Source: Sanguinoderma infundibulare (taxonomy: Eukaryota > Basidiomycota > Agaricomycetes > Polyporales > Polyporaceae). From it: a stretch of DNA of 64,000 nucleotides. The translations under genes were made by a program, and so were the position numbers. Shown piece after piece: positions 1-64,000 of this stretch (positions are counted from its first letter, which is position 1; the number at the start of each line of letters is the position of its first letter). The stretch covers positions 620,001 through 684,000 of the forward strand of contig JAVLRN010000002.1 of NCBI GenBank assembly GCA_032821775.1, read 5' to 3'. The notes under the pieces are model-generated. The model searched no databases and was not told the origin of the DNA. It saw only the letters and a list, made by a program, of their open reading frames with translations.

Positions 1-474
1 CCTGAGTGCCGGGTACTGCTTCATCTGAGTGCGCCACGTCCTCGTCCCCGCTTATTGAATCTATGAAGCTTATCCCGGTGAGGACAGGCTCGCCCATTGA
101 TGCTATAAATGCTGGGAGTTCCGCTGCAGTCTGGGAACCAGCTGCATTGAAGTTGAGTGAGGAGATGGCTGAGGGCGATGACGCGGAATAAGCAGAGCGG
201 TCCACTTGCCGAAGGTCCAGGAGGAAACGGCAGATAAGTATGGACGTCAATCTTCAACGTCAGTTTGAGCGGATCAATGTGTATAAGAGGGTGGGATGGG
301 GTTGACATACGGATAGATAATCACGCCAATATTTGCAGCGAAAGAATTGCTTGAACTGTATCCTGGCTATACAAGCACATTCAGGACTCCAGCACAGTGG
401 ACACAGGCTTAGTTATGGAACATGCCTTAAAGGCTATCAGGGTGAGGATGTCCAATGAAGTGAGAGCACTGATC
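1..474 (-). pseudogene. 3' part of a DUF6533-type seven-helix gene, cut off by mobile element 1
   Basis: Read on the minus strand, positions of about 240 down to 1 encode the last transmembrane end and the cytoplasmic tail of a DUF6533-type membrane protein: the motif ICRFLLDLRQVD followed by a Ser/Ala/Asp-rich tail that runs off the window edge. This family in Agaricomycetes has about seven membrane helices and no assigned biochemical role. The 5' part of the same gene lies at 4484-5690. The 4.0-kb element at 475-4483 sits between them, inside a coding exon, so the gene is almost certainly inactive. Further upstream (about 320-474) the exon that once joined the element reads GVMISALTSLDIL across the junction when one copy of the duplicated TC is removed. 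Family assignment is by pattern; exon borders here are approximate. Confidence 0.6.
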
Positions 475-795
475 CTCTGGAAAAACCTCCCCAGGCTAAT
501 TTGGTAGAAGTACAACTAAAAAGTAGGAATTAGTTCTAAATTAGAGGATTAGTGACATTAGCTCTAGTGTAGACAGGTTACCCCATCTCTTAGCAGTATT
601 AGGGATAAAATACCACTATAGTAGTGCTACAGTAGTGCTACTTTATCCCTAATTCCTCCTAATGGTTGCTAATGTAGGACTACAGGTTCAGTATCTCAGA
701 AATTTGCTGGCTGTCCAGAACTTGCACACACAACATAGAAGATAGACATGAAAAGTATATATTGGCCATAACTAATACATTGCTGTAGCTACAGA
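475..795 (+). repeat. Left terminal inverted repeat of element 1
   Basis: AT-rich repeat that matches, inverted, 4173-4483 and also matches 37163-37490 (direct) and 40233-40525 (inverted). It contains a near-perfect hairpin at about 599-653 that starts TTAGGGATAAA and ends TTTATCCCTAA. Beyond 795, homology continues to about 985 only with the corresponding end of element 2 (40020-40230 inverted), so this end carries an extra shared subterminal segment. Confidence 0.8.
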
Positions 796-1826
796 GAAGC
801 CGGGTGAAGCATTGACACTCCGAGGTGATAGTCACACCCGGGAGAAGTCAAATGGTGGCATGCCAGATGCTGTGCAGAGTGGATGGTACAATGGCCATGG
901 GGGTGGGCAGCATTGTCATTGCCAGTGGTTGTCACCTCAAAGAGCATGTCTTCGAGGCTGCTGGCGGAGGCGCGGGAGCAGGAAGACCATCCACGTGAGG
1001 TTGAGCGGCCCCAGCAGCGCGAACAATGCTGGTTGGGGTAGGCGTAGCGAGGATCATAGGCGCGGGAGTGGGACAGGTGTGGGTACTGCTGGTCATGGGG
1101 GTGGACAGCGGCAGCAGCAGTAGCATGGACTGCGAGCTGAGGTTAGTGGTCGGGGCGTGGCCATTTACAAGGTATGCTGGATAAGGAGAGTTTGACAGCT
1201 GGAGAGGCAACAGCGAGCGATAGCGGCATAATGGGTGAATGGAAACATACCAAAAGACTGTACCACCTGGTACAGCTACGGTCATCTTCACGGTCGTTGC
1301 GGGGCCGCTTGGCGGGATGGGGTGTGCCTGGACTGGAAAGAGACCCATTGTAGCCGGCATCCATGCTTCTGGCATGGGGACACACGCGACTGGATGTTGC
1401 GCTCGGCAGCGGGGGCAGGGGGATGGAGGGGAAGTGCTGAGAGAATCTGAGCCTATGCGAGGAGGTGTGGGAGACATGGACGTGTGCGGACAGGATCTGG
1501 GGGAGCTGGATGGTGGAATAGACGGCATTGGGGACGTAGAAGGTGCTCGGCGAGGAGGGGATGGTACTTACAGGATGTGAGCAGCCTCGGGTTCACGGCA
1601 CCCTTTCCAACCGCCGCCACCTGTGTGCTTCTCGGACCCCTCACGGCTGTGGACAGCCTGAACGGGGTTGAGGGAGACGTTGCGCTCCCGCTCGCGTTCG
1701 GCGTGCTCCTTGCGCTTCTTGGTGCGCTGCCGGCCGCCCCGAACACCACTGGTCCCCGTTCCCCGCTCCCGGAGAGCAAGACGATCGTCATCAAGATGAA
1801 GCGCGCTAAAAGAAGTAGAGACTTAC

Positions 1827-1985
1827 GTTTAGCTGGAACCAAAATGCGACTGGCGACAAAAGCTGGGGAAAACATGGAGAGCGAGTTGGTCTAGCTGCTC
1901 TACGATAATATGCTCTCCTGTGGGATCCCAGCGAATCATGTGGTGGTTCTCTGACAGCTCGAGGCTGAACGCTTCATTAACACGA
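1827..1985 (-). pseudogene. Captured fragment of a heat-shock-factor DNA-binding domain
   Basis: On the minus strand the segment reads HHMIRWDPTGEHIIVE, then LALHVFPSFCRQSRF, which is the core of an HSF-type winged-helix DNA-binding domain. The exon ends with CAG CTA AAC (QLN) directly before a GTAAGT donor at 1826-1821. That matches the RQLN position of HSF, but about 7-8 bases just before it are missing, so the frame is broken. An intron donor is still present, so the piece was probably copied from genomic DNA. It is a fragment of about 50 residues inside element 1 and should not be read as a functional Hsf gene. Confidence 0.7.
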
Positions 1986-2259
1986 CAGCGCGAGCAAGAG
2001 ACACGTCAGGCGGACGTACGCATAGAACTTTGTAATGAAGGTAGCTTGTGGCTTCGTGGGTTGCTGCTGTGGCGTACCATCCGAGTTTGTTGGGGAGGCA
2101 TCGTCCTGCTTGAGCGACTGTGATTCACGAGGGGAGGGCTGGGAAGACGCGTCAGTGGGGTCCGAGGTGGAAGTGGCATCTGGTGGTAGTGGTGGTACGA
2201 GAGGAAGGGTTGCCGGGGCGGGGGGGACACCTGGGGGGCGAGCTGGGATGCTTCAGGCG

Positions 2260-2632
2260 TGGTGACGAGGGATGATGACCACGCTGGAAGTGACAATGGG
2301 TGCAATACCGAGCTCCATGAGCATCCCACGGCTCGATGGGAGGATGACACGCATCCAGTAGAGGGGATCCACCGAGTCCGAATGCCGTACAGGGGGACCT
2401 GGGAGCAGATGAGGAAGATGAGGAGCATAATGGCAGTCCATAGCACCTTTTGGTTGAATGGGACCTGTCCCGCGGCAGTCAGGAGGGAAGATGTGGATGA
2501 TGGAGGATGTAATGGTGAAAAAAACTGTCCAGGCGGGATGGTTGCGGGTGCTACTTACTTCGCGGTCTGGGGACGAAACCTCGGGGAGGATGGGCAAGAA
2601 CGGACGGACGAGATTCAGGAACCGGACTGCGA
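2260..2632 (-). pseudogene. Captured fragment of Sec61 alpha (translocon subunit)
   Basis: The minus strand encodes the N-terminal part of the ER protein-translocation channel. It reads FLNLVRPFLPILPEVSSPDR, then an intron (GTAAGT to CAG, about 2565-2470), then VPFNQKVLWTAIMLLIFL and CSQVPLYGI. After a frameshift it continues with SDSVDPLYWMRVIL and GMLMELGIAPIVTS. These are signature stretches of Sec61 alpha from its first residues through the plug region. The intron is retained, the frame is lost near 2390 and the rest of the gene is absent. It lies inside mobile element 1 on the strand opposite to the CCT3 and MADS pieces. Confidence 0.8.
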
Positions 2633-2782
2633 CGTTTTCTGGTGAGTATCCAGCATGTCAGAGCACGATGAGGAGACGTACATCCGCTCATGGTGGAAGA
2701 AAGAGGGCCAAGGAGTGGCTGGGGGTCAGCGAACGGAGGTGAGTTCCACAACAGGCACATCGCGCTTGAGAGGAGAGAGGTG

Positions 2783-2897
2783 ACGTGGCGAGTGGGAGGA
2801 GAGGCCGAAGTCTTAGACGCTCGGTTTGGTGGCACGTCGCCTGTGGCGCCACCATGTTGAGCATCTAAGACTTCAACTTTCCTCCCACTCGCCACGT
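2783..2897. repeat. 115-bp hairpin repeat (MITE-like), copy 1
   Basis: The outer arms are ACGTGGCGAGTGGGAGGA and its exact reverse complement, and inner arms share the GTCTTAGA / TCTAAGAC core. A second copy of the same design lies at 38661-38776 inside element 2. In both elements it lies upstream of the MADS-box piece, so it probably belongs to the common ancestor of the two elements or marks an insertion that preceded their amplification. Confidence 0.75.
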
Positions 2898-3009
2898 TGA
2901 CACCGTCCTCTCCGCACCCACCCTCTCGCAAACCACCTCCTCTTCCTCCTCGTCCAGCACTGCCGCTATCATCGGCGGTGTCATCGCCGGGCTCGCCATC
3001 CTCCTCGCC

Positions 3010-3375
3010 CTCCGGATCATGCTGCTCGACTGCCCGCTCGAGTACAAGAAGGGCGAGTCACAGACGAACATCGAGATCTCGAAGGAGGCGGACTGGTCTA
3101 AGATACGGGAGAACGAGGAGGAGCCCAGGTGCGTCCATTCCCTGATTTGACTCCTCCAGCCCTGTTCACTCAGCTCCCACGAACACAGTCAGACTATGCC
3201 CAGCACTTCCTCTACAAGCCAAACGTGTCCGTGCTCCACCCAGTACGCAAAACAGATAACAACTGCGTCGAGCGCGCCGTCGGTGCCACGATCGTCAACC
3301 GCATTGACGACCTCCACGATGCCAATGTGGGCACCAACTGCGGGCTCTTCTACATCGAGAAGATCAGCCGCTACT
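3010..3375 (+). pseudogene. Captured fragment of CCT3 (TCP-1 gamma chaperonin subunit)
   Basis: Two adjacent stretches match the gamma subunit of the cytosolic chaperonin CCT. The first reads LLDCPLEYKKGESQTNIEIS followed by KEADWSKIRENEEEP. The second reads YAQHFLYKPNVSVLHPVRK, then TDNN, then AVGATIVNRIDDL and GTNCGLFYIEKI. In CCT3 these lie in the same order within the intermediate and apical domains. About 50 bases of non-coding DNA (a possible intron or deletion) separate them near 3130-3190. The motif VRKTDNNRIAR typical of CCT3 is altered here (VRKTDNNCVER). The piece then runs straight into the sugar-transporter piece, in the same frame, near 3380. It is a fragment, not a complete chaperonin gene. 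Confidence 0.75.
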
Positions 3376-3394
3376 CTGCCGACTGGCCCTCGGA

Positions 3395-3905
3395 TGCCCT
3401 CGCTGCCCAGGTGTCCGTCGCATGCGTCTATGCCTTCACGACCGCGTACGGCGTCAGCTACAGTCCCATCGCCTGGATCCTCCCCTTCGAAGTCTTCCTG
3501 CTCTCTGCCTGCAGCAAGGGCGTCGGGCTCTCCACCGCGTCCTGCTGGACGAACAACTGTGCGTTATTTTTTTCTTTGTTTCTTCTCCCCCAGTGCTTCA
3601 TTTGCCCTTCCTTCTTCCCCGTCCCCTCTCCTTGCTTCCGTTTTCCACGTCGTATATTCCGTCATTACTGACGCAAGATGGCTTTTCTCAGTCCTCATCG
3701 GGCTGCTCACGCTGGTGCTGATACAGCGCTCCGCTGGTATGACGTTCATCGTCTTCGCGGCCGCATCTGGTGCGGCCTGCGTCTGGTCGACGTGTTGCGT
3801 GCCCGAGACGGCCAACGTCTCACTCGAGGAGATCAACGCTGTCTTCGGGTCGAGCGCAGGGCGGGAGGATGTTGCGTTCAAATGCCAGGCGAGTCCTCCA
3901 TTCTC
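3395..3905 (+). pseudogene. Captured C-terminal fragment of an MFS sugar transporter
   Basis: The reading frame from about 3395 gives AYGVSYSPIAWILPFEVF, KGVGLSTASCWTNN, an intron (GTGCGT at about 3560 to CAG at about 3690), then FLIGLLTLVLIQRSAG and CVPETANVSLEEINAVF. These are the last transmembrane helices and the PET-x-x-x-SLEE-like motif of the major facilitator sugar-porter family. Only this C-terminal third is present, fused in frame behind the CCT3 piece. It differs clearly from the decayed transporter at 59.6-61.9 kb, so it was not derived from that copy. The intron is retained, pointing to capture of genomic DNA. Confidence 0.75.
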
Positions 3906-3914
3906 TCTACTGCG

Positions 3915-4165
3915 ATCCTAGATGACGATGACAAGGACAAGCCAAAGGCACACAAGAAGGGCTGCCGCAGGAAGATCAAGATCGAGTTCATGCAGGACAA
4001 GTCCAGATGTCATATCACCTTCTCAAAATGAAAGGCGGGCATCATGAAGAAGGTTAGTTCCTCTCTCCTCTTTCATCACTGATTATTCTGTCGTCATCCC
4101 TCACTCTCCCCCCTCGCCTCCTCCAGGCATATGAGTTCTCCACCCTCACCAGCATGCTTGCTTGT
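3915..4165 (+). pseudogene. Captured MADS-box (Mcm1/SRF type) fragment, 3' end lost
   Basis: The frame reads DDDDKDKPKAHKKG, RRKIKIEFMQDKSR, HITFSK, then a TGA (4029-4031) where the family has Arg (FSKRKAGIMKK), then KAGIMKK. An intron (GTTAGT to CAG) follows, then AYEFSTLTS. This is the N-terminal half of an SRF/Mcm1-type MADS DNA-binding and dimerisation domain. The sequence stops where the terminal repeat of element 1 begins (about 4165-4173). The copy in element 2 extends further. The same TGA occurs in both copies, most simply a CGA to TGA change that preceded their separation. Confidence 0.75.
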
Positions 4166-4172
4166 AGCTACT

Positions 4173-4483
4173 GCAATGTATTAGTTATACTCAATATACA
4201 CTTTTCATGTTTATCTTCTTTGTGTGGTGTGTGCAAGTTCTGGACAGCCCAGTAAATTTCTGAGATACTGAGCCTGTAGTCCTGCATTAGCAACTATTAG
4301 GAGGATTAGGGATAAAGTAGCAATACTGTAGCACTACTATAGTGCTACTTTATCCCTAATGCTGCTAACAGATGGGGTAATCTGTCTACATTATAGCTAA
4401 TGTCATTAATTCTTTAATTTAGAACTAATTCCTACTTTTTAGTTGTATTCCCACAAGATTAGGTGGGGAGGTTTTTCCTGATG
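4173..4483 (-). repeat. Right terminal inverted repeat of element 1
   Basis: Inverted match to 475-795. The internal hairpin lies at about 4306-4359. The outermost bases (GGTTTTTCCTGATG on the plus strand) match the left end of element 2 at 37163, so the two ends of this family are distinguishable: one starts CTCTG, the other CATCAGG. Confidence 0.8.
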
Positions 4484-5690
4484 TCATCACACCACTATAT
4501 TAGTATCCAGTTGGGAAAGAGAGGAGGAGTCTGGATAGGTCAGCTCACATGAAGTAAATGCTTCCTGTACACCAAATTGGTCAGCCAATATCTGATTTGG
4601 TGTAGGCCATCATACACACCATTGTACAACATAGTATGGACAAGTGATGGCCCCTTTAAGACCCCTCCCTGCATTTTCCAAGATGTGTATGTAGTATACC
4701 ATGTTATGAGCAGCACAAGGATATTATCTGCCATTTCACAGAGCCCAGCAGCCAGGGAAACTATAATGAAATCATTGCATACATTTAATTTTGCCTGACA
4801 AACATCCAGGGCAGAGTGCTCACATGTTGATGGCATTTGCCATGGTACAATGGGATTCCCAGCACTGCAGTTGAAAGGACTGGGTAGTTCTATCCCATTC
4901 CAACTGACACTCATTATCTATGACATGACAAGTAAGCTCAGGCCCTGGGAGTCAATGATACTGACTGAGTGGACATACCCTTTGAGTGATTTCTGGTACA
5001 CCTAAGATGAATGTAAAGATGGTTATATATTTGTTTTTGCCAGATAAGGCATAGACTCGAATTGTTGCAAAGACTGAGGCATGTCATGTTCAGCATGCAA
5101 GGGTGGCAAGTAAGCTCATACTTACTTAAGCTGATGAAGAGGAACATAGTTGCTAATATAAATTGTATGTGACTATTTATCTGACACCTGGGAGTGTCTT
5201 TCAATGAGTATTCTGCATCCAGCCAGATGGTAGATCATAACATACACCTAAGGGAATTGCAACCATTTTTAGCAAGAACTATGATAATCATACAGAATAC
5301 GCACCATTTCTGACATGGGAAATATAGTTTGAAATACAAGAGCACACCCGATGATGGTTGGGTAGCGACTGAGCATATAGATCAGTGTCGAGATGGTGGG
5401 CTTTTGGCCCCTGCCAAAATTCCAGAAGCAATGAATTTCCTCGTCAAGGGTAATCAGCCAGTCGTAGGCGACAAGGGCTAGGCGGTGCGCCATGCATCAG
5501 AAAGGTTCTAGGGCATCAAGAGTTAAGACTTACCAAATGCCGCGGTGCCGTAGTACTCTCCTGTCCGTCTTCGAACAACAACCACGTCCGGACGGGGATG
5601 AATGGTCAGCTCAGACAAACCCTGACAATTGATAAAAACTCACAAAGCGGAAATGGCATCGGAAAAAGCGGACACAGCTGCAGAGGCCAT
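4484..5690 (-). pseudogene. 5' part of the DUF6533-type seven-helix gene, interrupted by element 1
   Basis: The start ATG is at 5690-5688 (MASAAVSAFSDAISA). Short exons follow with GT-AG introns: RTGEYYGTAAF, then ALVAYDWLITLDEEIHCFWN, which is the DUF6533 signature, then GCALVFQTIFPMSE. Nearer the element are CNDFIIVSLAAGLCE, VLLITWYTTYTSW and an exon reading NGSIYF. These correspond to successive membrane helices of the family. The last exon before the break starts at about 4494 and runs only 11 bases to the insertion point. The rest of the gene continues on the far side of the element at 1-472. A TATA-like box lies at 5765-5771. Some middle exons are AT-rich and poorly resolved, so the gene may have been decaying before the insertion. 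Confidence 0.6.
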
Positions 5691-10842: not shown

Positions 10843-11516
10843 ACGTCGAGATATTTCTAGTATCTCTGTGCCTTGCTTGAGCGGGGATCGTATCGCGAGA
10901 ATTGAGAGTGGTTGTGAGGACGACGTGAGGACGACGACGTCGACTTTCGAGTCAGGATAGCTGAGCGTGGGAACGCACGTGTCACATGATCTGTTCCAAG
11001 TCGCCCTGCTGTCCTCCTCGTCTCCTCGACGCGCTCCTGACCCACTGGGCCACTCGCCAAGCTGGCTATGAGGCTGTTATTTACCCTCTCTGTTTCTCCA
11101 CAGACGGTCTATCTTTCCCTATTTCCCCTTTTGGCACTGTGTATGACGTCATGCGTACTACCTGCCAGGGAGCGAGTAACTCAAGACAGGCAGGCTGACA
11201 TTTTCGGCTCAGGGATTGAATGGACACTGGCATCTCCACGGTAGTATCTTCCCCGAAACCGCGGAGAATGAATAAGAACACTCACCACGAATCAAATCGC
11301 CCCCTATTTTGCTTGCATATGCCGCCGACGCTGACCCAAGAGCTGCTCGTAAAGCTCAGCCGCAAGACGAACAACGTTGAGGAGGTGCTTGGTCAGCGGC
11401 GAGTGCCGACATCGGACATCGTTGATGTTCTTCTCATTTCACCATGACCAAGGCGAACGTGGTTCTGACATAGGATATGCAGCCAGTAATGACCGAGAGC
11501 GGGGGTCGTTTGAAGC
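10843..11516. other. Divergent promoter region between F-box and NmrA-like genes
   Basis: About 0.7 kb separates two genes transcribed away from each other. No gene or repeat is seen. The TATA box of the NmrA-like gene lies at its right end. Confidence 0.4.
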
Positions 11517-11523
11517 ATATAAG
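11517..11523 (+). promoter_or_regulatory. TATA box of NmrA-like gene 1
   Basis: ATATAAG about 65 nt upstream of the ATG at 11584. The paralogue at 28423 has the same element (CATATAAGAG) at the same distance. Confidence 0.55.
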
Positions 11524-11583
11524 AAGGGAACAGAGACGAGGATCAATACACGATCACTCACTTTTAATCCTCATCCTTCTACA

Positions 11584-12742
11584 ATGGCCAACCAGAAGCC
11601 GCTCGTACTCGTTGTTGGAGCGACCGGCACCACAGGCAAGATCATTGCTGACGCCGTCCTCTCGTCGGCAGACTTCGTGCGTAATTCGCCAATCGACCCC
11701 AATATGCTCTGCTGAACACCTCATACATCCAGCGCGTGGCGGCCCTTATCCGTCCTTCGTCGCTGTCTAAACCTGCGGTCTCCGAGCTCCGCGCTTCGGG
11801 CGTTGAGATTCGCTCGGGAGACGTCTCCGACAGCGTCGAGGGCCACAAGAAGAGCCTCGAAGGCGTCGACATCCTCGTCAGCGCCGTTGTCCCCTGGGTG
11901 GTCAACGAACAGCGCGCGATCATCCGCGCCGCGAAGGAAGTTGGCGTCCAACGCGTCGTCCCTTGCGACTTCGGCACCCCGGGCAGCAAAGGCGTCCGTG
12001 CGCTTCATGACGAGGTGTGTCCTCACGACCCGCCAGAACTTCCTAGATCGACGCTAAACGAGCACTAACAGAAACTAGCCATACGCGAGTTCATCAAGGA
12101 GCTCTGCGTGCCGCACACGTTCATCGACGTCGGCTGGTGGATGGAGATCTACCTGCCCCTGCCCCTACGCAGTAGCGCGCCGCTGGCGACCAAGGAGACG
12201 ACGTGGAAGATATACGGAGACGGCAAGGCTCGCAACCTCCTTACACACAACCAGATCATTGGCCAGTATGTCGCAAGGATCATCGTCGACCCTAGGACGT
12301 TGAACCAGGCGGTGATCGTGTGGGAGGACGAAGTGAGCCAGGAGGATGCACACGCCCTCGGCGAGAGACTCTCTGGGGAGGGGGACGCTCTGAAGGCGAA
12401 GCGGATTGTCGTAAGTTTCCCTTGCCTGCGAATCGAGTGGCGCAAGGACTCACATACGTGCAGACAACGAAGGATGGCTATCTCGCTCCCGCCGCTGCCG
12501 CAAAGGAGATCCTTGCGAAGGATCACAACGACGTCGATGGGCGCAGCGCCGAAGGCTGGAACGAGTACCAAGTCAGCATGAACGTGTTGGGAGAGAACAC
12601 CCTCGAGAACGCAAAGAAGCTTGGGTACCTGGATGCTAGAGAGTTGTATCCCGACATCGAGCCTCTGCCGTTCGAGGAGTATGCGAAGCAGTTTTACAGC
12701 ATGGAGGATCCAGGAGTCATTTGGGCAAAAATAGCCCAATGA
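11584..12742 (+). CDS. NmrA-like / isoflavone-reductase-like NAD(P)-binding protein, copy 1
   Basis: Exons are 11584-11676, 11733-12014, 12072-12410 and 12464-12742, about 330 residues, all joined by in-frame GT-AG introns. The N-terminus VLVVGATGTTGKIIADA is the GxxGxxG dinucleotide-binding turn of the NmrA / isoflavone reductase branch of the short-chain dehydrogenase superfamily. VDILVSAVVPW and RVVPCDFGTPG are the following Rossmann strands, and FIDVGWWMEIYLPLP lies in the substrate domain. Members either reduce small aromatic compounds or act as redox sensors; which applies here is not visible. Copy 3 (27267-28423, minus) is a very close paralogue with identical intron positions, and copy 2 (20505-21747) is more distant. 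It is complete, with no frame damage. Confidence 0.85.
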
Positions 12743-12887
12743 CTCCAGAGATACATACGGAGCGGGCAGTACTGTTCTGATGCGTCTCTTAGGAATGCAG
12801 TACGTGGTTAGTTTGCGTAATCTGAGTTGGATCGTTCTCAAACCATACCTGTCCTTATAGTATTGAGTCCTTGACCACGAAACGCGG

Positions 12888-13194
12888 TTTATCGGGTTTA
12901 AACCTTGGTTACACGAGGTAAACCGCCCGTAGCGTGCGGTACCCCGCTGCGGTACCTCTCGAACCGGCCGCGCCGGTTCGTGCGTTCCTGGTCTAACCGC
13001 GCACGCTAGCGCTGCGGACTCCCTCCTCGCTAGGAGTTAGGAGTTCGGGGATCGCGAACCTGGCTTACAGCGGCAGAGGCGGGATCCGCCGATCCCTCAG
13101 TTCTCTCTCACCGCCCGCCAGGTATGCACGCCGCAAGGTTCTGACCGCGTCGAACCTCACTAACTCTCTCACCGCCCGCCAGCGTTTTGTGTAG
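12888..13194 (+). repeat. Split direct repeat A1
   Basis: 307 bp, matches 16045-16351 with one noticed substitution (GTATGCACGC against GTATGCATGC). It includes the last codons of the recombinase frame and a GC-rich set of short palindromes (for example GAACCGGCCGCGCCGGTTC). Confidence 0.9.
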
Positions 13195-15872: not shown

Positions 15873-16044
15873 TACCGCTCGGCTGCTCCGTCGACCGTAA
15901 TTTATCTGGGCGTCGCGGGCCGCGACCGCGGCGCCCGAGTCCCGCTATTTTTTAGTGCGCTCGAGTCCTCTTTCTTTATTCTCTCTCAATTTCTTCTATG
16001 GCTTTCACCCCTTTCACAGCGAAACGACACAAAGCGCGGGGCGT
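15873..16044 (+). repeat. Split direct repeat B1
   Basis: Identical by eye to 16393-16564; begins TACCGCTCGGCTGCTCC and ends GCGGGGCGT before the TTTAT core. It contains a palindrome around GGGCCGCGACCGCGG. Confidence 0.9.
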
Positions 16045-16351
16045 TTTATCGGGTTTAAACCTTGGTTACACGAGGTAAACCGCCCGTAGCGTGCGGTACC
16101 CCGCTGCGGTACCTCTCGAACCGGCCGCGCCGGTTCGTGCGTTCCTGGTCTAACCGCGCACGCTAGCGCTGCGGACTCCCTCCTCGCTAGGAGTTAGGAG
16201 TTCGGGGATCGCGAACCTGGCTTACAGCGGCAGAGGCGGGATCCGCCGATCCCTCAGTTCTCTCTCACCGCCCGCCAGGTATGCATGCCGCAAGGTTCTG
16301 ACCGCGTCGAACCTCACTAACTCTCTCACCGCCCGCCAGCGTTTTGTGTAG
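16045..16351 (+). repeat. Split direct repeat A2
   Basis: Second copy of A1, placed directly after B1 with the TTTAT core at 16045-16049. Confidence 0.9.
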
Positions 16352-27266: not shown

Positions 27267-28423
27267 TCACCGTGCTTTTGCCCAAACGGCCCCTGGGTCC
27301 TCCATGCTGTAGAACCGCTTGGCGTACTCCTCAAACGACAGCGGCTCGATGTCGGGGTAGAGTTCTCTAGCATCCAGGTACCCAAGCTTCTTTGCGTTCT
27401 CGAGAGTGTTCTCCCCCAACACGTTCATGCTGAGTTGGTACTCGTTCCAGACAACGGCCATACGCGCCGCGATATCGGTGTGGTCCTTCGCAATGATCTC
27501 CTTTGCGGCAGATACGGTGGCAAGGTAGTCATGCTTCGTCGTCTGTGCATATGTGAGTTCTTCGCCCGTCCATTCTCTAGCGAGAGGCACTTACGACAAT
27601 CCGCTTCGCCTTCAGAGCGTTCCCCTCCCCAGAGAGTCTCTCGCCGAGCGCGTGCGCATCCTCCTGGCTCACATCGTCCTCCCACACGATCACCGCCTGG
27701 TTCAGCGTTCTCGGGTCGACGAGGATCCTTGCAACGAACTGGCCGATGCTCTGGTTGTGCGTGAGGAGGTTGCGAGCCCCGCCGTCTCCGTAGATCTTCC
27801 ACGTCATCTCCTTGATCACCAGCGGCGCCGAGCTGCGGAGGGGAAGGGGCAGGTAGAGTTCCATCCACCAGCCGACGTCGATGAACGTGTGCGGCACGCC
27901 GAGCTCCTTGATGAAATCATGAATGGCTAGTTTCTGTCAGTTCTCATTTAGCATCGATCTAGGAAGTCCGAACGGGTGGAGAGGACTCACTTCGTCATGG
28001 AGCGCGCGGACGCCCTTGTCGCCTGGGGTGGCGAAGTCGCAAGGGACGACGCGCTGGACGCCGACTTCCTTCGCGGCGCGGATGATGTCGCGCTGCTCGT
28101 TGATCAGCCAGCCGACGACGGCGCTGACGAGGATGTCGACGCCCTCGAGGCTCTTCTTGTGGCTCTCGACGCTGTCGGAGACGTCTCCCGAGCGTATCTC
28201 GACGCCCGAAGCGCGGAGCTCAGAAACGGCAGGTTTCGACAGGGAGGAAGGACGAATAAGGGCCGCCACGCGCTGGTTGCATGTGTGGTGTTCAGCGGAG
28301 CACGTCCGCGCAGAATTGGGGAACGCGTACGAAGTCTCCCGACGCGACCAGGGCGTCCGCGATGATCTTGCCTGTGGTGCCGGTCGCTCCGACGACGAGT
28401 ACGAGCGGCTTCTGGCTGGGCAT
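27267..28423 (-). CDS. NmrA-like / isoflavone-reductase-like NAD(P)-binding protein, copy 3
   Basis: Exons are 28423-28331, 28272-27991, 27933-27595 and 27542-27267. Starts MPSQKPLVLVVGATGTTG. The protein is nearly the same as copy 1 (for example VAALIRPSSLSKPAVSELR, VVPCDFATPGDKGVRALHD, WKIYGDGGARNLLTHNQ) and has all introns at identical positions. The two genes are therefore a recent inverted duplication about 15 kb apart, enclosing the dynamin, NmrA copy 2 and ceramidase genes. The end differs (PGAVWAKAR against PGVIWAKIAQ). It is intact. The substrate is unknown. Confidence 0.85.
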
Positions 28424-28483
28424 TGCAGACGGATGTGGGCGAAAGGTGAGTGGTTGCAGGCTCATCCTTGTCGCTGATCCTCT

Positions 28484-28490
28484 CTTATAT
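28484..28490 (-). promoter_or_regulatory. TATA box of NmrA-like gene 3
   Basis: ATATAAG on the minus strand, about 63 nt upstream of the ATG at 28423, conserved with copy 1. Confidence 0.55.
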
Positions 28491-36210: not shown

Positions 36211-37162
36211 AATTTTTTGTGCCTAAGAATAGGGGGAAAAATGTTAATGCGAATGTCACGTTTTGTCGAACATTTAGCCCCATATAGAACTTGACGTTTG
36301 AGATTTCTCCGAATGTTCACCCAAATTTGACGTTTCGGCCCGCATTCCGAGGCCAACAAAATGTGACAGAAAATGTCACGTTCTACGGAACGCAAAACAT
36401 TGACGAAAACATAGAGTTTAAGTGAACACTTTAGGGCGACTATAATTTTGAATTTTCGGCTATGTAGAATGTCGGTAGAATTTCAAGTTGTCCTGAACAT
36501 TGTCCGTGCCCGAAAACATCAAGTTCTGTAGGATATCAAATGTTAGTGAGAACATCAAGTTTAATGGAATAGAAAATAGTGTGCCCGCTCTCGACACGCC
36601 AAACACATGATAAGTGCCCACCAAGTGCCCGCCGAAACAAATATTTGCGCCCATTGCGTCGCGTTCGCGACGGTTACCTGAGCACACGGGCGGAACAGAG
36701 ATCAAGCAATCACATTGTTTGTATTTACAACATCAAGAACTAAGTGTGCGGCGACCGCAACATCAGGATGAATCCACTAGACGAAAATGTCGGAGTTGAT
36801 CCACGTCTCGAATGCCTCATCCGAATCGAACTGGTAGAGGTCATCCTCAAAGCCGGACATGGGGATCTTGCGGAACGTCGAGACCATCCAGCCGTAGAGC
36901 TCACGGACGCGGTCCGTAATGCTGCACAAACATGCTGTTAGTACTGCACATGAAAGACGAGGGAGAAAGAGGGGGATACTCACTAGAACACGTCGCACGA
37001 GCCGAAGTCGTCATTGACCGGCCATTTCAAGTACAGCGTGTGCTTGCACTCATTGAGGCTTTCGCCCGGGCCGATGAGCCAAAAGGCCGCGTTCGGCTTG
37101 TCCTCGACGAGGTGGAAGCCAATCGCAGCCATAGCCTAAAAGCGAGTTAGTGGGGCCGCAAA

Positions 37163-37490
37163 CATCAGGAAAACCCTCCCCACCTAATCTGGTGGGAATA
37201 CAACTAAAAAGTAGGAATTAGTTCTAAATTAGTAGGATTAGTGACATTAGCTATAATGTACACAGATTACCCCATCTGTTAGCAGCATTAGGGATAAAGT
37301 AGCACTATAGTAGTGCTACAGTATTGCTACTTTATCCCTAATCCTCCTAATAGTTGCTAATGCAGGACTACAGGCTCAGTATCTCAGAGATTTATTGGGC
37401 TGTCCAGAACTTGCAGACATCACACAAAGAAGATAAACATGAAAAGTGTATATTGAGTATAACTAATACATTGCGGTAGCTACAGACAAG
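37163..37490 (+). repeat. Left terminal repeat of element 2
   Basis: Matches 4173-4483 (inverted) most closely, including the CATCAGG outer end. The internal hairpin is at about 37288-37342. Confidence 0.8.
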
Positions 37491-37504
37491 CCAGGTGAAG
37501 CATT

Positions 37505-38560
37505 GACTCTTCTAGATGTTGTAATCTGAGAGGGTGCGACCATCCTACACCTGATGGGAGACATTCTCACCCTCATCCTTTGTGGCGAGCCAGAACCAAT
37601 AGCAAGCCCGCCGGGGACGTGAGACAGGTGCTGCACAGGGACCAAGGTATGATTGATGGGGGTGCCAACTGGCATGGAGGAGGGGCGCTGGCTGTGGGGG
37701 GCATTGAGACAGGCCCAGATGAGGTTCTTGCCCTCTGGTTGGGTGACGAGGGGCTGGCGCTTTGCGGTGGTGAAGGTGTAGACGAGACCGGTCTCGGACA
37801 CAACGACGAGGACTTCAGTGCCGGTGAGGGTGGGGAAATCATACACCTGGAGGAGGCGGGGGTCGATGGCGACATTGCAGATATCTGTGTGAGGATGGGC
37901 ATGGAGTTGATGTATGTGAGCATGCGACGCTGAAACGCCACCACCCTAAGGGTGGCGAGGAAGGGAACCACTAACCATCGCCAACATGCTTGAGGGCACG
38001 GTCAACACCTCCCGCTGCTTCGTAATACGCAGGGCCGAGTTCAGCTGTGGGTGGGGGACGAGGGGAGGGAGACGGCGAGTCTATTGAGAGGTCGTGGTGG
38101 TGGGAGTGCGAGAGGGACCACGAGGACGGGGCGGAAGATAGAATGGAGCCAACAAGAAGGAGGAGGACGCTAGGGCGGGCGCTGTAGACATAGGGATACG
38201 GCCAATGCATCAACGAGGGAGACTCACATCGAGTAATTCCCCTATGCTAGTTTCAGCACAAGTACACTCCAGCATCGCAAGAAATCGCGAAGCCCGCCAG
38301 GTTCCCGAGGGTGAAAGAGCGAGGGATGAGGACGGGATGGGCGACGACGAAAGAGGAGAGAGGGACAAACCATCATCATGATGCCCGCCTTTCATTTTGA
38401 GAAGGTGATATGACGTCTGGACTTGTCCTGGATGAACTCGATCTTGATCTTCCTGCGGCCAGCCTTCTTGTTCGTCTTTGGCTTGTCCTAGTCGTCGTTG
38501 TTGTCCTGGCCGCTCTCGCTGGCATCGGGGTCGTGGATGAAGCTGTCGTCGTTGGGGACG
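37505..38560 (-). pseudogene. Captured MADS-box (Mcm1/SRF type) gene piece, longer copy
   Basis: The minus strand from about 38560 reads YPRHKLDQVVPNDDSF, a TAG at the DD/DKPK junction, then AGRRKIKIEFIQDKSRRHIT, FSK, a TGA (38394-38392) and KAGIM. The second half of the domain lies at 37846-37500: YDFPTLTGTEVLVVVSETG, VYTFTTAKRQPLVTQPEGKN, then a Pro-rich tail. Together these give a whole SRF/Mcm1 MADS and dimerisation region with a lost or rearranged middle and unrelated sequence (about 37930-38330) between the halves. The FSK-TGA-KAG change is identical to that in element 1. Host Mcm1 is a DNA-binding regulator; this copy cannot encode it. Confidence 0.75.
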
Positions 38561-38660
38561 ACCTGGTCGAGTTTGTGGCGAGGGTACTTGTTGGACGAGG
38601 TGGAGGACGCCTGGGGGGTGAGCTAGGTGGTGATGAGGGATCCGCTCGATGAGAGAGGCG

Positions 38661-38776
38661 ACGTGGCGAGTGGGAGGAAAGTGGAAAGTCTTAGACGCTC
38701 GATTCTGTGGCATGTCACCTGTGGCGCCACTGAATCGAGCGTCTAAGACTTGCCACTCTCCTCCCACTCGCCACGT
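38661..38776. repeat. 115-bp hairpin repeat (MITE-like), copy 2
   Basis: Same design as 2783-2897: outer arms ACGTGGCGAGTGGGAGGA and its complement, inner arms AAGTCTTAGACGCTCGAT and its complement. The inner arm here pairs over a longer stretch than in copy 1. Confidence 0.75.
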
Positions 38777-38829
38777 CGCACCTCTCTCCTCGTGCTCCTC
38801 ACCCATTTCCTCCCCCGCCTTCACCATCC

Positions 38830-39293
38830 CTGCTGCGCTGAACGCACAGAACCCCGAGCTTAATGCTACGCAAATTCACGCGGTCGCGATCTGTCACCTC
38901 CCATATTGCTGTGACGCCTGCGCAATGGCGTCCACGGCCCTCACCATCCTCGACGTCGGCCTCAACAACCCCAGCGTCATTGGAATCGACGCTCTCGCAC
39001 CCATGCACGCTTTCAAGGGCAAGGCCGCCCGCTCGTGGCAGGATCTCCCCGCAGAGATTGTCAGGCATGTCTCTCATCTCGCTTATTGGTCTGCGCCGCT
39101 GTCGGGCCTAATGTCTCGTCCACGTCCAGGCTGATCATCACCTATTATCTCCTCGACCTCTCCACAAACGGCTGCATTCCAAAAACATGGGAGCCCCGAG
39201 AACTCTGGCCGCAGCACTTTGCATTCACCACCTACCACGACACCGTCCAGATGGCCTATCTCAAGATACTCGTCCCATGGTGGACGCACCATC
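38830..39293 (+). pseudogene. Captured F-box-like gene fragment
   Basis: Reads ALTILDVGLNNPSVIGI, then ARSWQDLPAEIVR (start of an F-box), an intron (GTCTCT region to a splice near 39125), then ITYYLLDLSTNGCIPKTWEP and ELWPQHFAFTTYHDTVQ. This order is typical of one Agaricomycete F-box family. It ends at a GTGAGT donor near 39294; no later exon of the same family was recognised. It lies in element 2 on the strand opposite the MADS piece. Confidence 0.5.
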
Positions 39294-39546
39294 GTGAGTG
39301 TCCATTTATGCGCCTCGGACCTTGTGATCTGCGCCATTCTCGTTCCCTCTTTTCCCTCTCCCTGCCATGCCTCTTCATTTCGACACGTCGACGCGTTCCG
39401 CGTATGAGTGTCTGTCTTCTCACCTGCTCAATTGCGGCAGTCGCACTCCCGAATATCACCCGAGCAAGCTGCACATCCCCGCATGCAGAGAGCAATGGTG
39501 TGCGGCATGACGTGAACCCTTCTTGTCGCTCTTGCTACCTTTGCAG

Positions 39547-39602
39547 GAGAGCTGCTGGAGTTGTTCGATGAGATAGATCTTGGCGTCGAGGTGAACACCA
39601 GA
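39547..39602 (+). pseudogene. Unidentified captured exon
   Basis: After a TTTGCAG acceptor the frame reads ELLELFDEIDLGVEVNTRG, and after a possible short shift SLKSIRKGLASIVKRVVDPL up to about 39690. It reads like a soluble conserved protein, but I cannot name the family. Confidence 0.3.
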
Positions 39603-39689
39603 GGTGAGTCTCTCAAGAGCATCCGCAAGGGCCTCGCTTCCATTGTCAAGCGGGTCGTTGATCCCCTCATGGCTGGCAGTATCGCAGAG

Positions 39690-39928
39690 AATTTGCGAGC
39701 AAGTCCATGAACGGGGTGCCAGGAGTAATAGCGTTGCTATCCTTGCACACGCCCCGAGGGCAAGGTATGTTCACGCAACATGCTTCATGACTTACAATGC
39801 AACTGACCATTGGTTTCCCCCAGCTTCCCTTGGAGACTGAAGAGGACATGGTGGTGGAAATCTTTAACTGCACGAAGCGCGTCGTCAACATGATTCGTCC
39901 ACGCAAGCTCCTCTTTATGGCCATTGGT
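39690..39928 (+). pseudogene. Captured fragment of Rat1/Xrn2 5'-3' exoribonuclease
   Basis: Reads PCTRPEGK before a GTATGT donor (39761), then after a CCCCAG acceptor (39822) [31 protein letters not shown], ending at another GTATGT donor. In Rat1/Xrn2 these stretches are contiguous near the N-terminal catalytic core (MNG...PCTHPEGK...ETEEEM...[19 protein letters not shown]...AIDGVAPRAKMNQQR). The DGVAPRAKMN exon is absent. Introns are retained. It is a fragment of about 60 residues. Confidence 0.7.
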
Positions 39929-40232
39929 ATGTCTGCTCATGATCTAGCATGATCACTCCCACACTGATGATCCTCGCTACTTACCCTGATCAGCATCGTT
40001 TGCGCCACTGGGGCCACTCAACCTTGCGTGGGCGGTCCTCCTGCTCCCGCGCCTCCGCCAGCAGCCTCGAAGACATGCTCTTTGAGGCGATGACCACCGG
40101 CGACGATAATGCTACCCACCCCCACGGCCATTGTGCCATCCACTCTGTACAGCATCTGGCACACTACCATTTGACTTCTCCCGGGCGTGACTATCACCTT
40201 GGAGTGTCAACGCTTCACCTGGCTTCTCTGTA

Positions 40233-40525
40233 GCTACAGCAATGTATTAGTGATGTTCAATATACACTTTTCATGTCTATCTTCTACATGTGTGCAAGTT
40301 CTGGACAGCCAGCAAATCTCTGAGATACTGAACCTTTAGTCTTGCATTAGCAACCATTAGGAGGAATTAGATATAAAGTAGCACTACTATAGTGCTATAA
40401 TACCTGCTATGAGATGGGGTAACCTGTCTAAACTAGAGCTAATGTCACTAATCCTCTAATTTAGAACTAATTCCTACTTTTTAGATGTATTTCTACCAAA
40501 TTAGCCTGGGGAGGTTTTTTCAGAG
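40233..40525 (-). repeat. Right terminal repeat of element 2
   Basis: Matches 475-795 (inverted), with the CTCTG outer end. Its internal hairpin is partly lost (about 40368-40410). The adjoining 40020-40230 matches 800-985 inverted. Confidence 0.75.
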
Positions 40526-41511
40526 AATGGAGGCTAGAGGCTGGAGCACGCACCGCGAGGAAGTCGCGCATGGACAGGTTGAGCCGTGCCAACCCTTCAC
40601 CTCCCAGAACACTCATAATGGGCTGCAGAGTGTAAGTACACGAATAGTGGGCATAGAGGCAGTACATACCACGAATTTGGAGGTGTGCAGCGCCAGAATG
40701 GGCTTCAGAGTGGAGCGCGTCCCAGGGCGGAAGAGGGTGAACAGGGAGAGGAGAGAAAGAAGCTTGGAAAGCTTGTTGCAAAGCATATTCGAATGGGGAG
40801 AGGTCTGAAGTGAATGGATGGTGGTGGTGGAGCAGAAAGAGGCAGAGGAGTGAGTGGGTGCCGCCTAGGGTGTTTGCTGGCGGGCGCGAGAGAGTTGGGC
40901 CCAGGATTGAGGGTGGTGATCGCGAGAGATCAAGACTTGTTGACTGCTATGTTTCCTTATGTCACAGCGCTGATATATACAGCAGCAGGCACTCATGACA
41001 TTCAATACAATGCAATATATAGAGTACCAGTTGTGTTGCAACAGTCTATGTCCATGTTTGATCCCTGTGCAGACATATGCCTATTTTAGAAGCAATGTCG
41101 GCAGAATACGACATATCGTGAACGGCGGTGAAACGGTAAAGGTACCCTGTGGTCGCGTCAGCCCTGTCCCTCGGAAGGACAAGTGCGACGTGTTGAGGGT
41201 GCGGGCCGTGGTGTTGTAACGCGCACGCGGACGCTATGGATATGTTGAGTGGTATGTCAGCAAACTTGGACATATCGCGGTCACGGGCAGGAGGACTTAC
41301 GTACGTTTGGTTTACGGCTGTCGTGGCCTTCGGATCATCTGCTTGATGTCATTTGTGCTGTGAAAGGAGTCGTCAGTGGAGAGAGAGTTCGAGAGGCTCG
41401 GAGAGGCGGGCGCCGTAGACATGGACACCCACGGTGCCTAACCCTCAGCGCCCGCTCTTTCGCGACCGCGATGAACGTGCGGCACCACCCATGAATGCAA
41501 ACCCTCTCACC

Positions 41512-62261: not shown

Positions 62262-64000
62262 ACCCAGGTGCCGTGCGTTCGTCGCGGTCACGAAAGAGCG
62301 GGCGCTGAGGGTTAGGCGCCGGGGGTGTTCATGTCGACGGCGCCCGCCTCTCTGAGCCTCTCGAACTCTCTCTCCACTGACGACTCCTTTCACAGCACAA
62401 ACAACATCAAGCAGATGATCCAAAGGCCACGAAAGCCGTGAACCAAACGTACGTAAGTCCTCCTGCCCGTGACCGCGATATGTCCGATTTCGCTGACATA
62501 CCGCTCGACATATCCATAGCATCCACGTGCACTTTACAATGCCACGGCCTACACCCTCAACGCGTCGCACTTGTCCTTCCGAGGGACAGGGCTGACGCGA
62601 CCGCAGGGTACCTTTACCGTTTCACCGCCATTCGCGATATGTCGTATTCTGCCGACATTGCTTCTAAAATAGGCATATGTCTGCACAGGGATCAAACATG
62701 GACATAGACTGTTGCAACACAACTGGTACTCTATATATTGCATTGTATTGAATGTCATGAGTGCCTGCTGCTGTATATACCAGCGCTGTGACATAAGGAA
62801 ACATAGCAGTCAACAAGTCTTGATCTCTCGCGATCACCACCCTCAATCCTGGGCCCAACTCTCTCGCGCCCGCCAGCAAACACCCTAGGTGGCACCCACT
62901 CACTCCTCTGCCTCTTTCTGCTCCACCACCACCATCCATTCACTTCAGACCTCTCCCCATTCGAATATGCTTTGCAACAAGCTTTCCAAGCTTCTTTCTC
63001 TCCTCTCCCTGTTCACCCTCTTCCGCCCTGGGACACGCTCCACTCTGAAGCCCATTCTGGCGCTGCACACCTCCAAATTCGTGGTATGTACTGCCTCTAT
63101 GCCCACTATTCGTGTACTTACACTCTGCAGCCCATTATGAGTGTTCTGGGAGGTGAAGGGTTGGCGCGGCTCAACCTGTCCATGCGCGACTTCCTCATAG
63201 TGCGTGCTCCAGCCTCTAGCCTCCATTTGCGGCCCCACTAACTCGCTTTTAGGCTATGGCTGCGATTGGCTTCCACCTCGTCGAGGACAAGCCGAACGCG
63301 GCCTTTTGGCTCATCGGCCCGGGCAAAAGCCTCAATGAGTGCAAGCACACGCTGTACTTGAAATGGCCGGTCAATGACGACTTCGGCTCGCGCAACGTGT
63401 TCTAGTGAGTATCCCCCTCTTTCTCCCTCGTCTTTCATGTGCAGTACTAACAGCATGTTTGTGCAGCATTACAGACCGCGTCCGTGAGCTCTACGGCTGG
63501 ACGGTCTCGACGTTCCGCAAGATCCCCATGTCCGGCTTTGAGGATGACCTCTACCAGTTCGATTCGGACGAGGCATTCGAGACGTGGATCAACTCCGACA
63601 TTTTCGTCTAGTGGATTCATCCTGATGTTGCGGTCGCCACACACTTAGTTCTTGATGTTGTAAATACAAACAATGTGATTGCTTGATCTCTGTTCCGCCC
63701 GTGTGCTCAGGTAACCGTCGCGAACGCGACGCAATGGGCGCAAATATTCGTTTCGGCGGGCACTTGGTGGGCACTTATCATGTGTTTGGCGTGTCGAGAG
63801 CGGGCACACTATTTTCTATTCCATTAAACTTGATGTTCTCACTAACATTTGATATCCTACAGAACTTGATGTTTTCGGGCACGGACAATGTTCAGGACAA
63901 CTTGAAATTGTATTGACATTCTACATAGCGTAAAATTCGACATTATAGTCGCTCTAAAGTGTTCATTTAAACTCTACATTTTCGGCAACGTTTTGCGTTC
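62262..64000 (+). repeat. Large repeat, right copy (empty site for element 2, cut by window end)
   Basis: Matches 40528-41490 and 36390-37162 in inverted order without the 3.36-kb element. It still matches at the last base of the window, so the true end lies beyond. It contains the intact-looking small gene at 62967-63611. Confidence 0.8.
62967..63611 (+). CDS. Small unidentified protein (about 160 residues), right copy
   Basis: Exons are 62967-63083, 63131-63199, 63253-63404 and 63467-63611, all joined in frame by GT-AG introns of 47-62 nt. The protein starts MLCNKLSKLLSLLSLFTLF (a hydrophobic, weakly signal-like start), continues PIMSVLGGEGLARLNLSMRD, AMAAIGFHLVEDKPNAAFWL, CKHTLYLKWPVNDDFGSRNV, and ends YGWTVSTFRKIPMSGFEDDL, FDSDEAFETWINSDIFV. 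I recognise no domain. It is duplicated with the large repeat at 36777-40786. TATATA-rich sequence at 62728-62780 may serve as a promoter. It could be a mobile-element gene or a host gene carried by the repeat. Confidence 0.55.

What the first reader, a model, noticed from the sequence alone, without database searches (positions are those of the whole stretch)
475..4483. A family of gene-capturing TIR elements (Pack-type) in a mushroom genome, founding copy 1
Seen: two elements (475-4483 and 37163-40525) share about 300-bp inverted ends, end-specific terminal sequences (CTCTG versus CATCAGG), a flanking 2-bp duplication (TC and AA) and a MADS-box piece with a hairpin, while the rest of their cargo differs. 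Element 1 alone holds pieces of Hsf, Sec61 alpha, CCT3, a sugar transporter and a MADS gene. Known: Pack-MULEs and Helitrons shuffle genes in plants; long-TIR gene-shuffling elements are, as far as I know, poorly described in basidiomycetes. Inference: a non-autonomous family that repeatedly captures conserved exons.
Basis: partly seen in the sequence, partly recalled or inferred. Interest (0 to 1): 0.9.

Follow-up and report, generated by a model that had tools for sequence, protein, structure and literature searches.

The report
Gene-patchwork Plavaka transposons with central palindrome
This fungal genome holds about 62 copies of a jumping DNA element, many of them built from patches of ordinary host genes around a central palindrome; they are likely moved by a Plavaka-type enzyme and their patches were likely added by error-prone DNA repair, so they would act as a natural gene-shuffling device.

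Summary
Elements 1 (475-4483) and 2 (37163-40525) are complete transposons with 2-bp duplications; element 2's empty site lies at 62267-64000. Genome-wide, 62 convergent end pairs were found: all 62 join one CTCTG tip to one CATCAGG tip, and 53 have an exact 2-bp duplication (shuffled mean 5.9). A 12-kb element with the same tip types, 106 kb away, carries a Plavaka transposase gene (PF18759); published PlavakaB termini (CATCA) and duplications match one of our two ends. Element 1's Hsf, Sec61, CCT, sugar-transporter and MADS pieces all have donor loci (87-93% identical); other members carry XRN, malate dehydrogenase, cyclin, proteasome or ENTH pieces. Capture by template-switching gap repair is inferred. 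New variant: a Pack-type Plavaka family in a basidiomycete-like genome.

The parts
475..4483 (+). Element 1 (copy a), 4009 bp, non-autonomous; two more copies at C6:2656171-2659821 and C5:3915160-3918823
473..474 (.). TC target duplication, left
4484..4485 (.). TC target duplication, right
475..816 (+). A end (tip CTCTGG)
4155..4483 (-). B end, minority form (tip CATCAGG, then A-like sequence)
817..984 (+). Segment shared, inverted, with the transposase-bearing element (86% over 168 bp)
1808..2158 (-). Heat-shock-factor gene piece (donor C3:1464425-1464788, 87%); also in the transposase-bearing element and other members
2274..2763 (-). Sec61 alpha gene piece (donor C2:4203668-4204164, 91%), inserted beside the palindrome; absent at this point in L018
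2771..2922 (.). Central palindrome of element 1
3014..3132 (-). CCT chaperonin piece 1 (donor C12:773704-773820, 93%)
3126..3368 (-). CCT chaperonin piece 2 (donor C12:773398-773640, 87%); 63 bp of the donor skipped between the pieces
3368..3916 (+). Sugar transporter piece (donor C2:1951542-1952090, 90%)
3921..4154 (-). MADS-box gene piece (donor C7:2746447-2746680, 87%)
37163..40525 (-). Element 2 (copy a), 3363 bp; two more copies at C5:2870008-2873370 and C4:376587-379949 (98%)
37161..37162 (.). AA target duplication, left
40526..40527 (.). AA target duplication, right
37163..37491 (+). B end of element 2, A-like form
40184..40525 (-). A end of element 2
37573..37860 (+). MADS gene piece, first half (donor L037 498-787, 86%)
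37852..38316 (+). Three adjoining pieces of locus C7:207795-209092 (83-90%), inserted inside the MADS piece
38321..38609 (+). MADS gene piece, second half (donor L037 800-1088, 90%)
38651..38790 (.). Central palindrome of element 2 (loop in flipped orientation)
38788..38887 (+). Piece of locus C18:439545-439640 (L041 246-341, 90%)
38882..39527 (+). Piece of locus C2:691980-692627 (96%), inserted inside the L041 piece
39525..39678 (+). Continuation of the L041 piece (337-490, 90%)
39677..39742 (+). XRN exonuclease gene piece (donor L040 310-375, 97%)
39741..39960 (+). XRN gene piece joined in inverted orientation (donor L040 821-602, 92%)
62267..64000 (-). Unoccupied copy of element 2's target (empty site with a single AA)

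Best explanation
Element 1 belongs to a family of 62 end-paired copies in this genome, 53 of them with exact 2-bp target duplications, whose members carry pieces of host genes and are likely moved by a Plavaka-type transposase encoded in a 12-kb relative on the same contig, the pieces having likely been added by microhomology-guided template switching during gap repair inside the elements. Shown: in all 62 pairs one A tip (CTCTGG and close variants) faces one B tip (CATCAGG and close variants); copies of the same cargo sit at different sites with different duplications; donor loci remain elsewhere; in five places a later patch lies inside an earlier stretch; 25 of 31 fully read members have a palindrome near the middle, and in several pairs of members a shared arm and unrelated arms meet there. 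Inferred: the transposase needs one A and one B tip; breaks or fork stalls inside the element, perhaps favoured by the palindrome, are filled from other loci and from other members; only products that keep one A and one B tip move on.
For: Tips and duplications: 62 of 62 convergent pairs are A-B (300 label shuffles: mean 31.3, maximum 41); 53 of 62 exact 2-bp duplications (2000 shuffles: mean 5.9, maximum 16); empty site. Transposase: A tip at C2:730758, PF18759 hits at 737184-738184 without stops, B tip at 742807, duplication GC/GC; a second copy, 91% over 5.7 kb, lies in the pair C16:250779-273553, duplication GG/GG. Published PlavakaB: 2-3 bp duplications, termini CATCA..TGATG (PMC12730594, passages). 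Cargo donors at 83-97%. Five nested inserts: Sec61 beside the palindrome (E1), locus C7:207795 inside MADS (E2), locus C2:691980 inside L041 (E2), malate dehydrogenase inside a C9:714486-715161 piece (L017), a multicopy piece inside a C2:695513-695998 piece (L016). Siblings without the insert: L018 for Sec61, L014 for the L016 insert. Microhomology over 13 joints: mean 1.92 against 0.65 in 4000 simulated sets, P=0.00075. Arms: E2a, L013, L014 share 99-100% of the A arm and 0-10% of the B arm; L017/L019 99% and 0%; E1a/L018 75-97% and 0%; L018/L030 0% and 61-63%; L014/L016 0% and 37-52%. Apart from the B end itself, shared sequence stops in the palindrome or 15 bp past it in 4 of 5 A-sharing pairs. 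Precedent for the repair model: animal Pack-TIRs with median 2-bp microhomology (PMC8277862, passages).
Against: 9 of 62 pairs lack the duplication. The 12-kb element's ends match the short elements at only 71-89% (A) and 70-89% (B) over short stretches, so it is a relative and perhaps not the direct driver; its activity is untested and its ORFs would need splicing to join. Under strict scoring only 3 of 13 joints have 3 bp or more of microhomology and 3 have none; the 13 joints come from two elements. 6 of 31 fully read members lack the palindrome, the 12-kb element among them, so movement does not need it. Not every pair shows exchange: L023/L024 share both arms and L016/L125 share parts of both; in the fifth A-sharing pair (L013/L014) shared sequence runs about 155 bp past the palindrome. 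The two palindrome arms do not co-vary beyond chance (P=0.17). Two of 8 further elements scanned showed no Pfam domain, and several domain hits in cargo lie under Pfam's cut-off on their own.
Confidence: 0.77

Rival explanations
1. Capture by side-by-side insertion and joint movement, the model proposed for plant Pack-CACTA: two copies land close together and the outer ends move with everything between them.
For: Some copies lie close together, for example C9:2436317-2439801 and 2440319-2444528, or C12:2339686-2343292 and 2345455-2348459; the model is published for plants (PMC8903248 and PMC13317346, passages).
Against: No relic tips (up to 4 mismatches in 17-18 bases) inside the cargo of elements 1 and 2. 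Their cargo comes from several contigs in short patches, some nested and one inverted, not as one neighbouring stretch. Other members were not tested for relic tips in this way.
Confidence: 0.1
2. Arms are exchanged by ordinary homologous recombination between members, using the palindrome merely as the longest internal stretch they share; the palindrome has no special fragility.
For: The palindrome is in 25 of 31 fully read members and arms switch there; its arms do not co-vary. The flipped loop in E2a, L016, L017 and L019 (by eye) fits recombination between palindrome arms.
Against: It does not explain uptake of host gene pieces. The five known inserts lie 8-540 bp from the palindrome in arms of about 1.2-2.0 kb, but five cases chosen afterwards prove little.
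Confidence: 0.4
3. The palindrome is a functional RNA or DNA signal, such as a source of small RNA or a protein-binding hairpin, and the cargo is passive.
For: Strong predicted folds in most of 17 aligned copies and conservation across them.
Against: No excess of paired changes between arms (P=0.17); absent from 6 of 31 fully read members.
Confidence: 0.12
4. Segmental duplication or assembly chimeras gave the look of a mobile family.
For: Repeats are common around the window.
Against: Constant boundaries, 53 of 62 duplications, different duplications and flanks for copies of one cargo, and an empty site.
Confidence: 0.01

Closest known systems
PlavakaB DNA transposons of Agaricomycotina (PMC12730594, passages seen)
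   Same: PF18759 transposase in the 12-kb member; 2-bp duplications; one terminus CATCA
   Different: The other terminus is CTCTG, not CATCA; most copies lack a PF18759 match and members carry host gene patches. The passages seen describe TET/JBP genes in Plavaka elements, not patchworks of host gene pieces.
Pack-CACTA and other Pack-TYPE elements of plants (PMC8903248, passages seen)
   Same: Non-autonomous copies with transposon ends, target duplications and host gene pieces, sometimes from several loci; CACTA/EnSpm is placed with Plavaka in the CMCT group by PMC12730594
   Different: Fungal host; two unlike tips; nested patches; central palindrome with arm exchange; 2-bp duplications
Pack-TIRs of animals with gap-filling and FoSTeST models (PMC8277862, passages seen)
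   Same: Short microhomology at joints; breakpoints skewed to the interior; later amplification of some
   Different: Here several patches per element, nested, with an identifiable candidate weak spot
Gene-capturing Helitrons of Pleurotus (PMC4289320, passages seen) and stepwise capture in maize Helitrons (PMC3288121, passages seen)
   Same: Captured gene pieces in a mushroom genome; sequential capture
   Different: Helitrons lack inverted repeats and target duplications; these elements have both
hAT transduplication of a histone H3 gene in Pyrenophora (PMC3538342, passages seen)
   Same: DNA transposon carrying a host-like gene in a fungus
   Different: hAT superfamily, ascomycete, one histone-like gene rather than a patchwork

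Membership tests
Plavaka superfamily | PF18759 transposase inside an element bounded by the family's ends | tested here: met
   C2:730758-742807 with PF18759 at 737184-738184 and duplication GC/GC
Plavaka superfamily | Catalytic DDE residues and the C(2)C, H(3-4)H motif | not tested
   Residues were not aligned to a reference set; a CxxC (CLKC) can be seen in the ORF
PlavakaB subgroup | 2 or 3 bp target duplication | tested here: met
   53 of 62 pairs, 2 bp
PlavakaB subgroup | Termini CATCA..TGATG, that is CATCA at both ends | tested here: not met
   CATCA (one CATCT) at one end and CTCTG or CTCTA at the other in 62 of 62 pairs; so not filed as a strict PlavakaB
Pack-TYPE / Pack-TIR | No transposase, transposon ends and target duplications | tested here: met
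   Elements 1 and 2: no transposase among Pfam matches, tips and duplications present
Pack-TYPE / Pack-TIR | Host gene pieces with donor loci elsewhere | tested here: met
   Elements 1, 2, L016, L017
Pack-TYPE / Pack-TIR | Moved in trans by an autonomous relative | not testable with these tools
   Needs a transposition assay
Helitron | TC start, CTRR end, no target duplication | tested here: not met
   CTCTG/CATCAGG tips and 2-bp duplications
CACTA/EnSpm | CAC..GTG termini and 3-bp duplications (as given in PMC12730594) | tested here: not met
   Tips differ; 2-bp duplications, only two pairs match further
Mutator-like (Pack-MULE) | 8-11 bp target duplications (recalled) | tested here: not met

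The most novel reading that the evidence does not exclude
The central palindrome is a built-in capture and exchange hub: it breaks or stalls replication, the gap is filled from other genes, and whole half-elements are swapped between members across it, while the need for one A and one B tip filters the products. The family would be a two-armed exon-shuffling machine, not a transposon with passive cargo.
Probability: 0.35. Interest if true: 0.85.

Novelty: new variant of a known kind. Interest (0 to 1): 0.72.

Why it matters
How cut-and-paste transposons pick up host exons is debated between neighbour insertion and gap filling. Here donor loci, elements with and without single captures, nested order and a candidate weak spot sit in one 49-Mb genome, so the order of events can be read and tested. 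It would also give Plavaka, a transposon group of mushrooms, a gene-shuffling role that nine library searches did not list, and it suggests a rule of two unlike tips.

Tried and rejected
Rejected readings: Helitron, CACTA and Mutator identity (tips and duplications); KDZ transposase as driver (87 matches; the one copy inside a family pair, C4:2862836 in C4:2854579-2883681, belongs to a set of six like copies whose other five lie in none of the 62 pairs, so it looks like a nested insertion, inferred); C14:125964-136874 as an autonomous copy (much of it is a nested Copia-like retroelement, judged from ORFs by eye); the palindrome kept as a paired RNA (no covariation); copies as segmental duplication.

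Led nowhere or limited: the Pfam scan of 8 further elements found no domain in two (L026, L124) and sub-cut-off matches in L022 and L125; L041, L042 and L038 gave no Pfam name, so the labels I used for them in notes (an F-box label for L038 among them) are unsupported and dropped; DNA of other fungal genomes could not be searched. The host species is unknown; the highest-ranking named transposases are from Trametes, Ganoderma and Lenzites, with Chiua and Mycena further down, hence a polypore relative is likely. The two pattern searches see only these two tip types, so members with a third tip type would be missed.

Rows dropped before counts: of 88 A-pattern matches, 6 that are B ends read one base in were removed; of 76 B-pattern matches, 4 off-family or A-overlapping ones were removed, leaving 82 and 72. 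Pattern read backwards as control: 17 for A, 0 for B. 30 ends stayed unpaired. Of the 23 palindrome-bearing elements in hand, 16 representatives were used: near-identical copies (E1b, E1c, E2b, E2c, L027, L028) and the retroelement-interrupted L015 element were left out. Palindrome searches are capped, so 43 of 62 is a lower bound; 5 of the 40 palindrome places lie outside the 62 pairs. Of the 53 B ends counted as the common form, 40 matched the common motif and 13 were variants assigned by eye. In one search the CCT joint scores 0 under the strict rule although 7 identical bases overlap.
Full report
1. What is there. Element 1 (475-4483) and element 2 (37163-40525) have one A tip (CTCTGG or CTCTGA) and one B tip (CATCAGG), with TC/TC and AA/AA flanks. 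Element 2's target exists unoccupied in the same window: the joined flanks match 62267-64000 (inverted) at 98.6% over 1000 bp without a gap, with a single AA. The window lies in a 48.9-Mb, 87-contig genome.

2. The family. Pattern searches with both tips (backward controls 17 and 0) gave 82 A and 72 B ends after removing overlaps and off-family matches. Neighbouring ends that point at each other within 40 kb make 62 pairs, and all 62 are A with B (300 label shuffles: mean 31.3, maximum 41). Reading the flanks of every pair gave an exact 2-bp duplication in 53 of 62 (2000 shuffles: mean 5.9, maximum 16); two pairs match beyond 2 bp; nine have none. 53 pairs are 2.7-5.1 kb and nine are 10.9-33.8 kb; all nine long pairs have the duplication. 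Element 1 has three copies (93-97% alike; TC, TA, GA) and element 2 three (98%; AA, TG, GA), so they moved after the cargo was assembled. Thirty ends stayed unpaired.

3. Two B forms. Nine of 62 B ends, those of elements 1 and 2 included, carry A-like sequence behind the B tip; of the other 53, 40 match the common motif and 13 are variants of it by eye. The tip stays B even when the sequence behind it is A-like. With the 62-of-62 pairing this suggests, as inference, that movement needs one tip of each kind.

4. The transposase. PF18759 (Plavaka) was sought in the genome. One good hit, C2:737184-738184, lies between an A tip at 730758 and a B tip at 742807 with GC/GC duplication: a 12,050-bp element. 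Its 366-aa ORF matches PF18759 at 1.1e-63, and the highest-ranking named relatives of that ORF are from Trametes, Ganoderma and Lenzites. The pair C16:250779-273553 (GG/GG) holds a second copy, 91% over 5.7 kb. None of the other 60 pairs contains a PF18759 hit, a capped, family-model search. A 2025 study gives PlavakaB 2-3 bp duplications and termini CATCA..TGATG (PMC12730594, passages); our B tip fits and our A tip does not.

5. Cargo. Element 1: HSF (1808-2158), Sec61 (2274-2763), CCT (3014-3368, two pieces), sugar transporter (3368-3916), MADS (3921-4154), with donors elsewhere at 87-93% whose Pfam identity was checked. Element 2: MADS, a C7:207795-209092 locus, L041, L038 and XRN pieces; L038, L041 and L042 have no Pfam name. 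Of 8 further elements scanned, six gave domains: malate/lactate dehydrogenase and SRF (L017), cyclin and Tudor-knot (L016), proteasome (L126), ENTH (L130), and sub-cut-off Sec61 (L022) and Tudor-knot (L125); two gave none. The MADS and sugar-transporter pieces align without a large gap across what frame breaks suggest are introns, so uptake was probably from DNA. The HSF piece is also in the 12-kb element and the MADS piece in L017 and L019, so these are likely older, inherited pieces.

6. Nested capture. In element 2, L038 (96% to donor) interrupts an L041 piece (90%) whose two halves are continuous in the donor, and three C7:207795 pieces interrupt the MADS piece. In element 1, Sec61 interrupts a stretch that is continuous in L018 and in other members. 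In L017, malate dehydrogenase (97%) interrupts a C9:714486-715161 piece; in L016, a multicopy piece interrupts a C2:695513-695998 piece, and L014 lacks that insert. Joints overlap by up to 7 bp by eye; scored strictly, 13 joints of elements 1 and 2 average 1.92 bp against 0.65 for simulated joints (P=0.00075), with 3 of 13 at 3 bp or more and 3 at zero. This is what gap filling with template switching would leave; animal Pack-TIRs show a median of 2 bp (PMC8277862, passages). No relic tips lie in the cargo of elements 1 and 2, against the neighbour-insertion model for these two.

7. Central palindrome and arm exchange. A palindrome of roughly 100-160 bp is present in 25 of 31 fully read members and in at least 43 of 62 overall; for the 41 placed its middle lies at a median of 1,890 bp from the A tip (quartiles 1,723-1,984). 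Some pairs of members share only one arm: E2a, L013 and L014 share the A arm (99-100%) but not the B arm (0-10%); L017/L019 and E1a/L018 likewise; L018/L030 and L014/L016 share only the B arm. Others share both (L023/L024) or parts of both (L016/L125). Apart from the B end itself, in 4 of 5 A-sharing pairs the shared sequence stops in the palindrome or 15 bp past it; in the fifth (L013/L014) about 155 bp past it. The loop is reversed in E2a, L016, L017 and L019 (read by eye), as expected if palindrome arms recombine. Against a kept RNA hairpin: no excess covariation (P=0.17). Against the palindrome being essential: six fully read members lack it.

8. Reading. A Plavaka-superfamily family whose short members are Pack-type: they work like Pack-CACTA, but differ in host, tips, nesting and palindrome. 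Shown: anatomy, family, duplications, donors, nesting, arm boundaries. Inferred: movement in trans, template-switch repair, and the palindrome as weak spot. Nine library searches (Plavaka with transposon and with capture, Pack-TYPE with fungi, Pack-MULE or gene capture with basidiomycete, captured gene fragments, palindrome with capture, transduplication with fungi, Polyporales with CACTA, mushroom gene fragments) listed no such family; I saw the listings and passages of eleven papers. Most subscription journals and Repbase were not searchable.

Noticed in passing
C10:1110251-1144006 and C4:2854579-2883681: A/B pairs of 33.8 and 29.1 kb with matching 2-bp duplications; mostly unread. They may be giant members or hold nested insertions.
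   Followed up: no
window 1605-1938: 334 bp in element 1 copy a that copies b and c lack; L018 has it.
   Followed up: partly
C18, C16:132089, C14:161487, C4:2950102, C2:4211192 and others: A related group shares window 1101-1571, some with part of the palindrome, without our A tip: a second end type or decayed members.
   Followed up: no
L127:2285-2393: A different, weak internal inverted repeat near the middle of a member that lacks the common palindrome.
   Followed up: no
C14:125964-136874 (L015, L029): Member interrupted by a Copia-like retroelement (ORFs, by eye).
   Followed up: partly
window 11515-12730 and 27276-28492; 12884-13183 and 16041-16340: Other repeats: inverted copies 77-88% alike and direct 300-bp copies 99% alike.
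   Followed up: no
C7:445335 and C7:451278-452279: The best PF18759 match of the genome lies 6 kb inward of a B tip, but no A tip lies within 40 kb.
   Followed up: no
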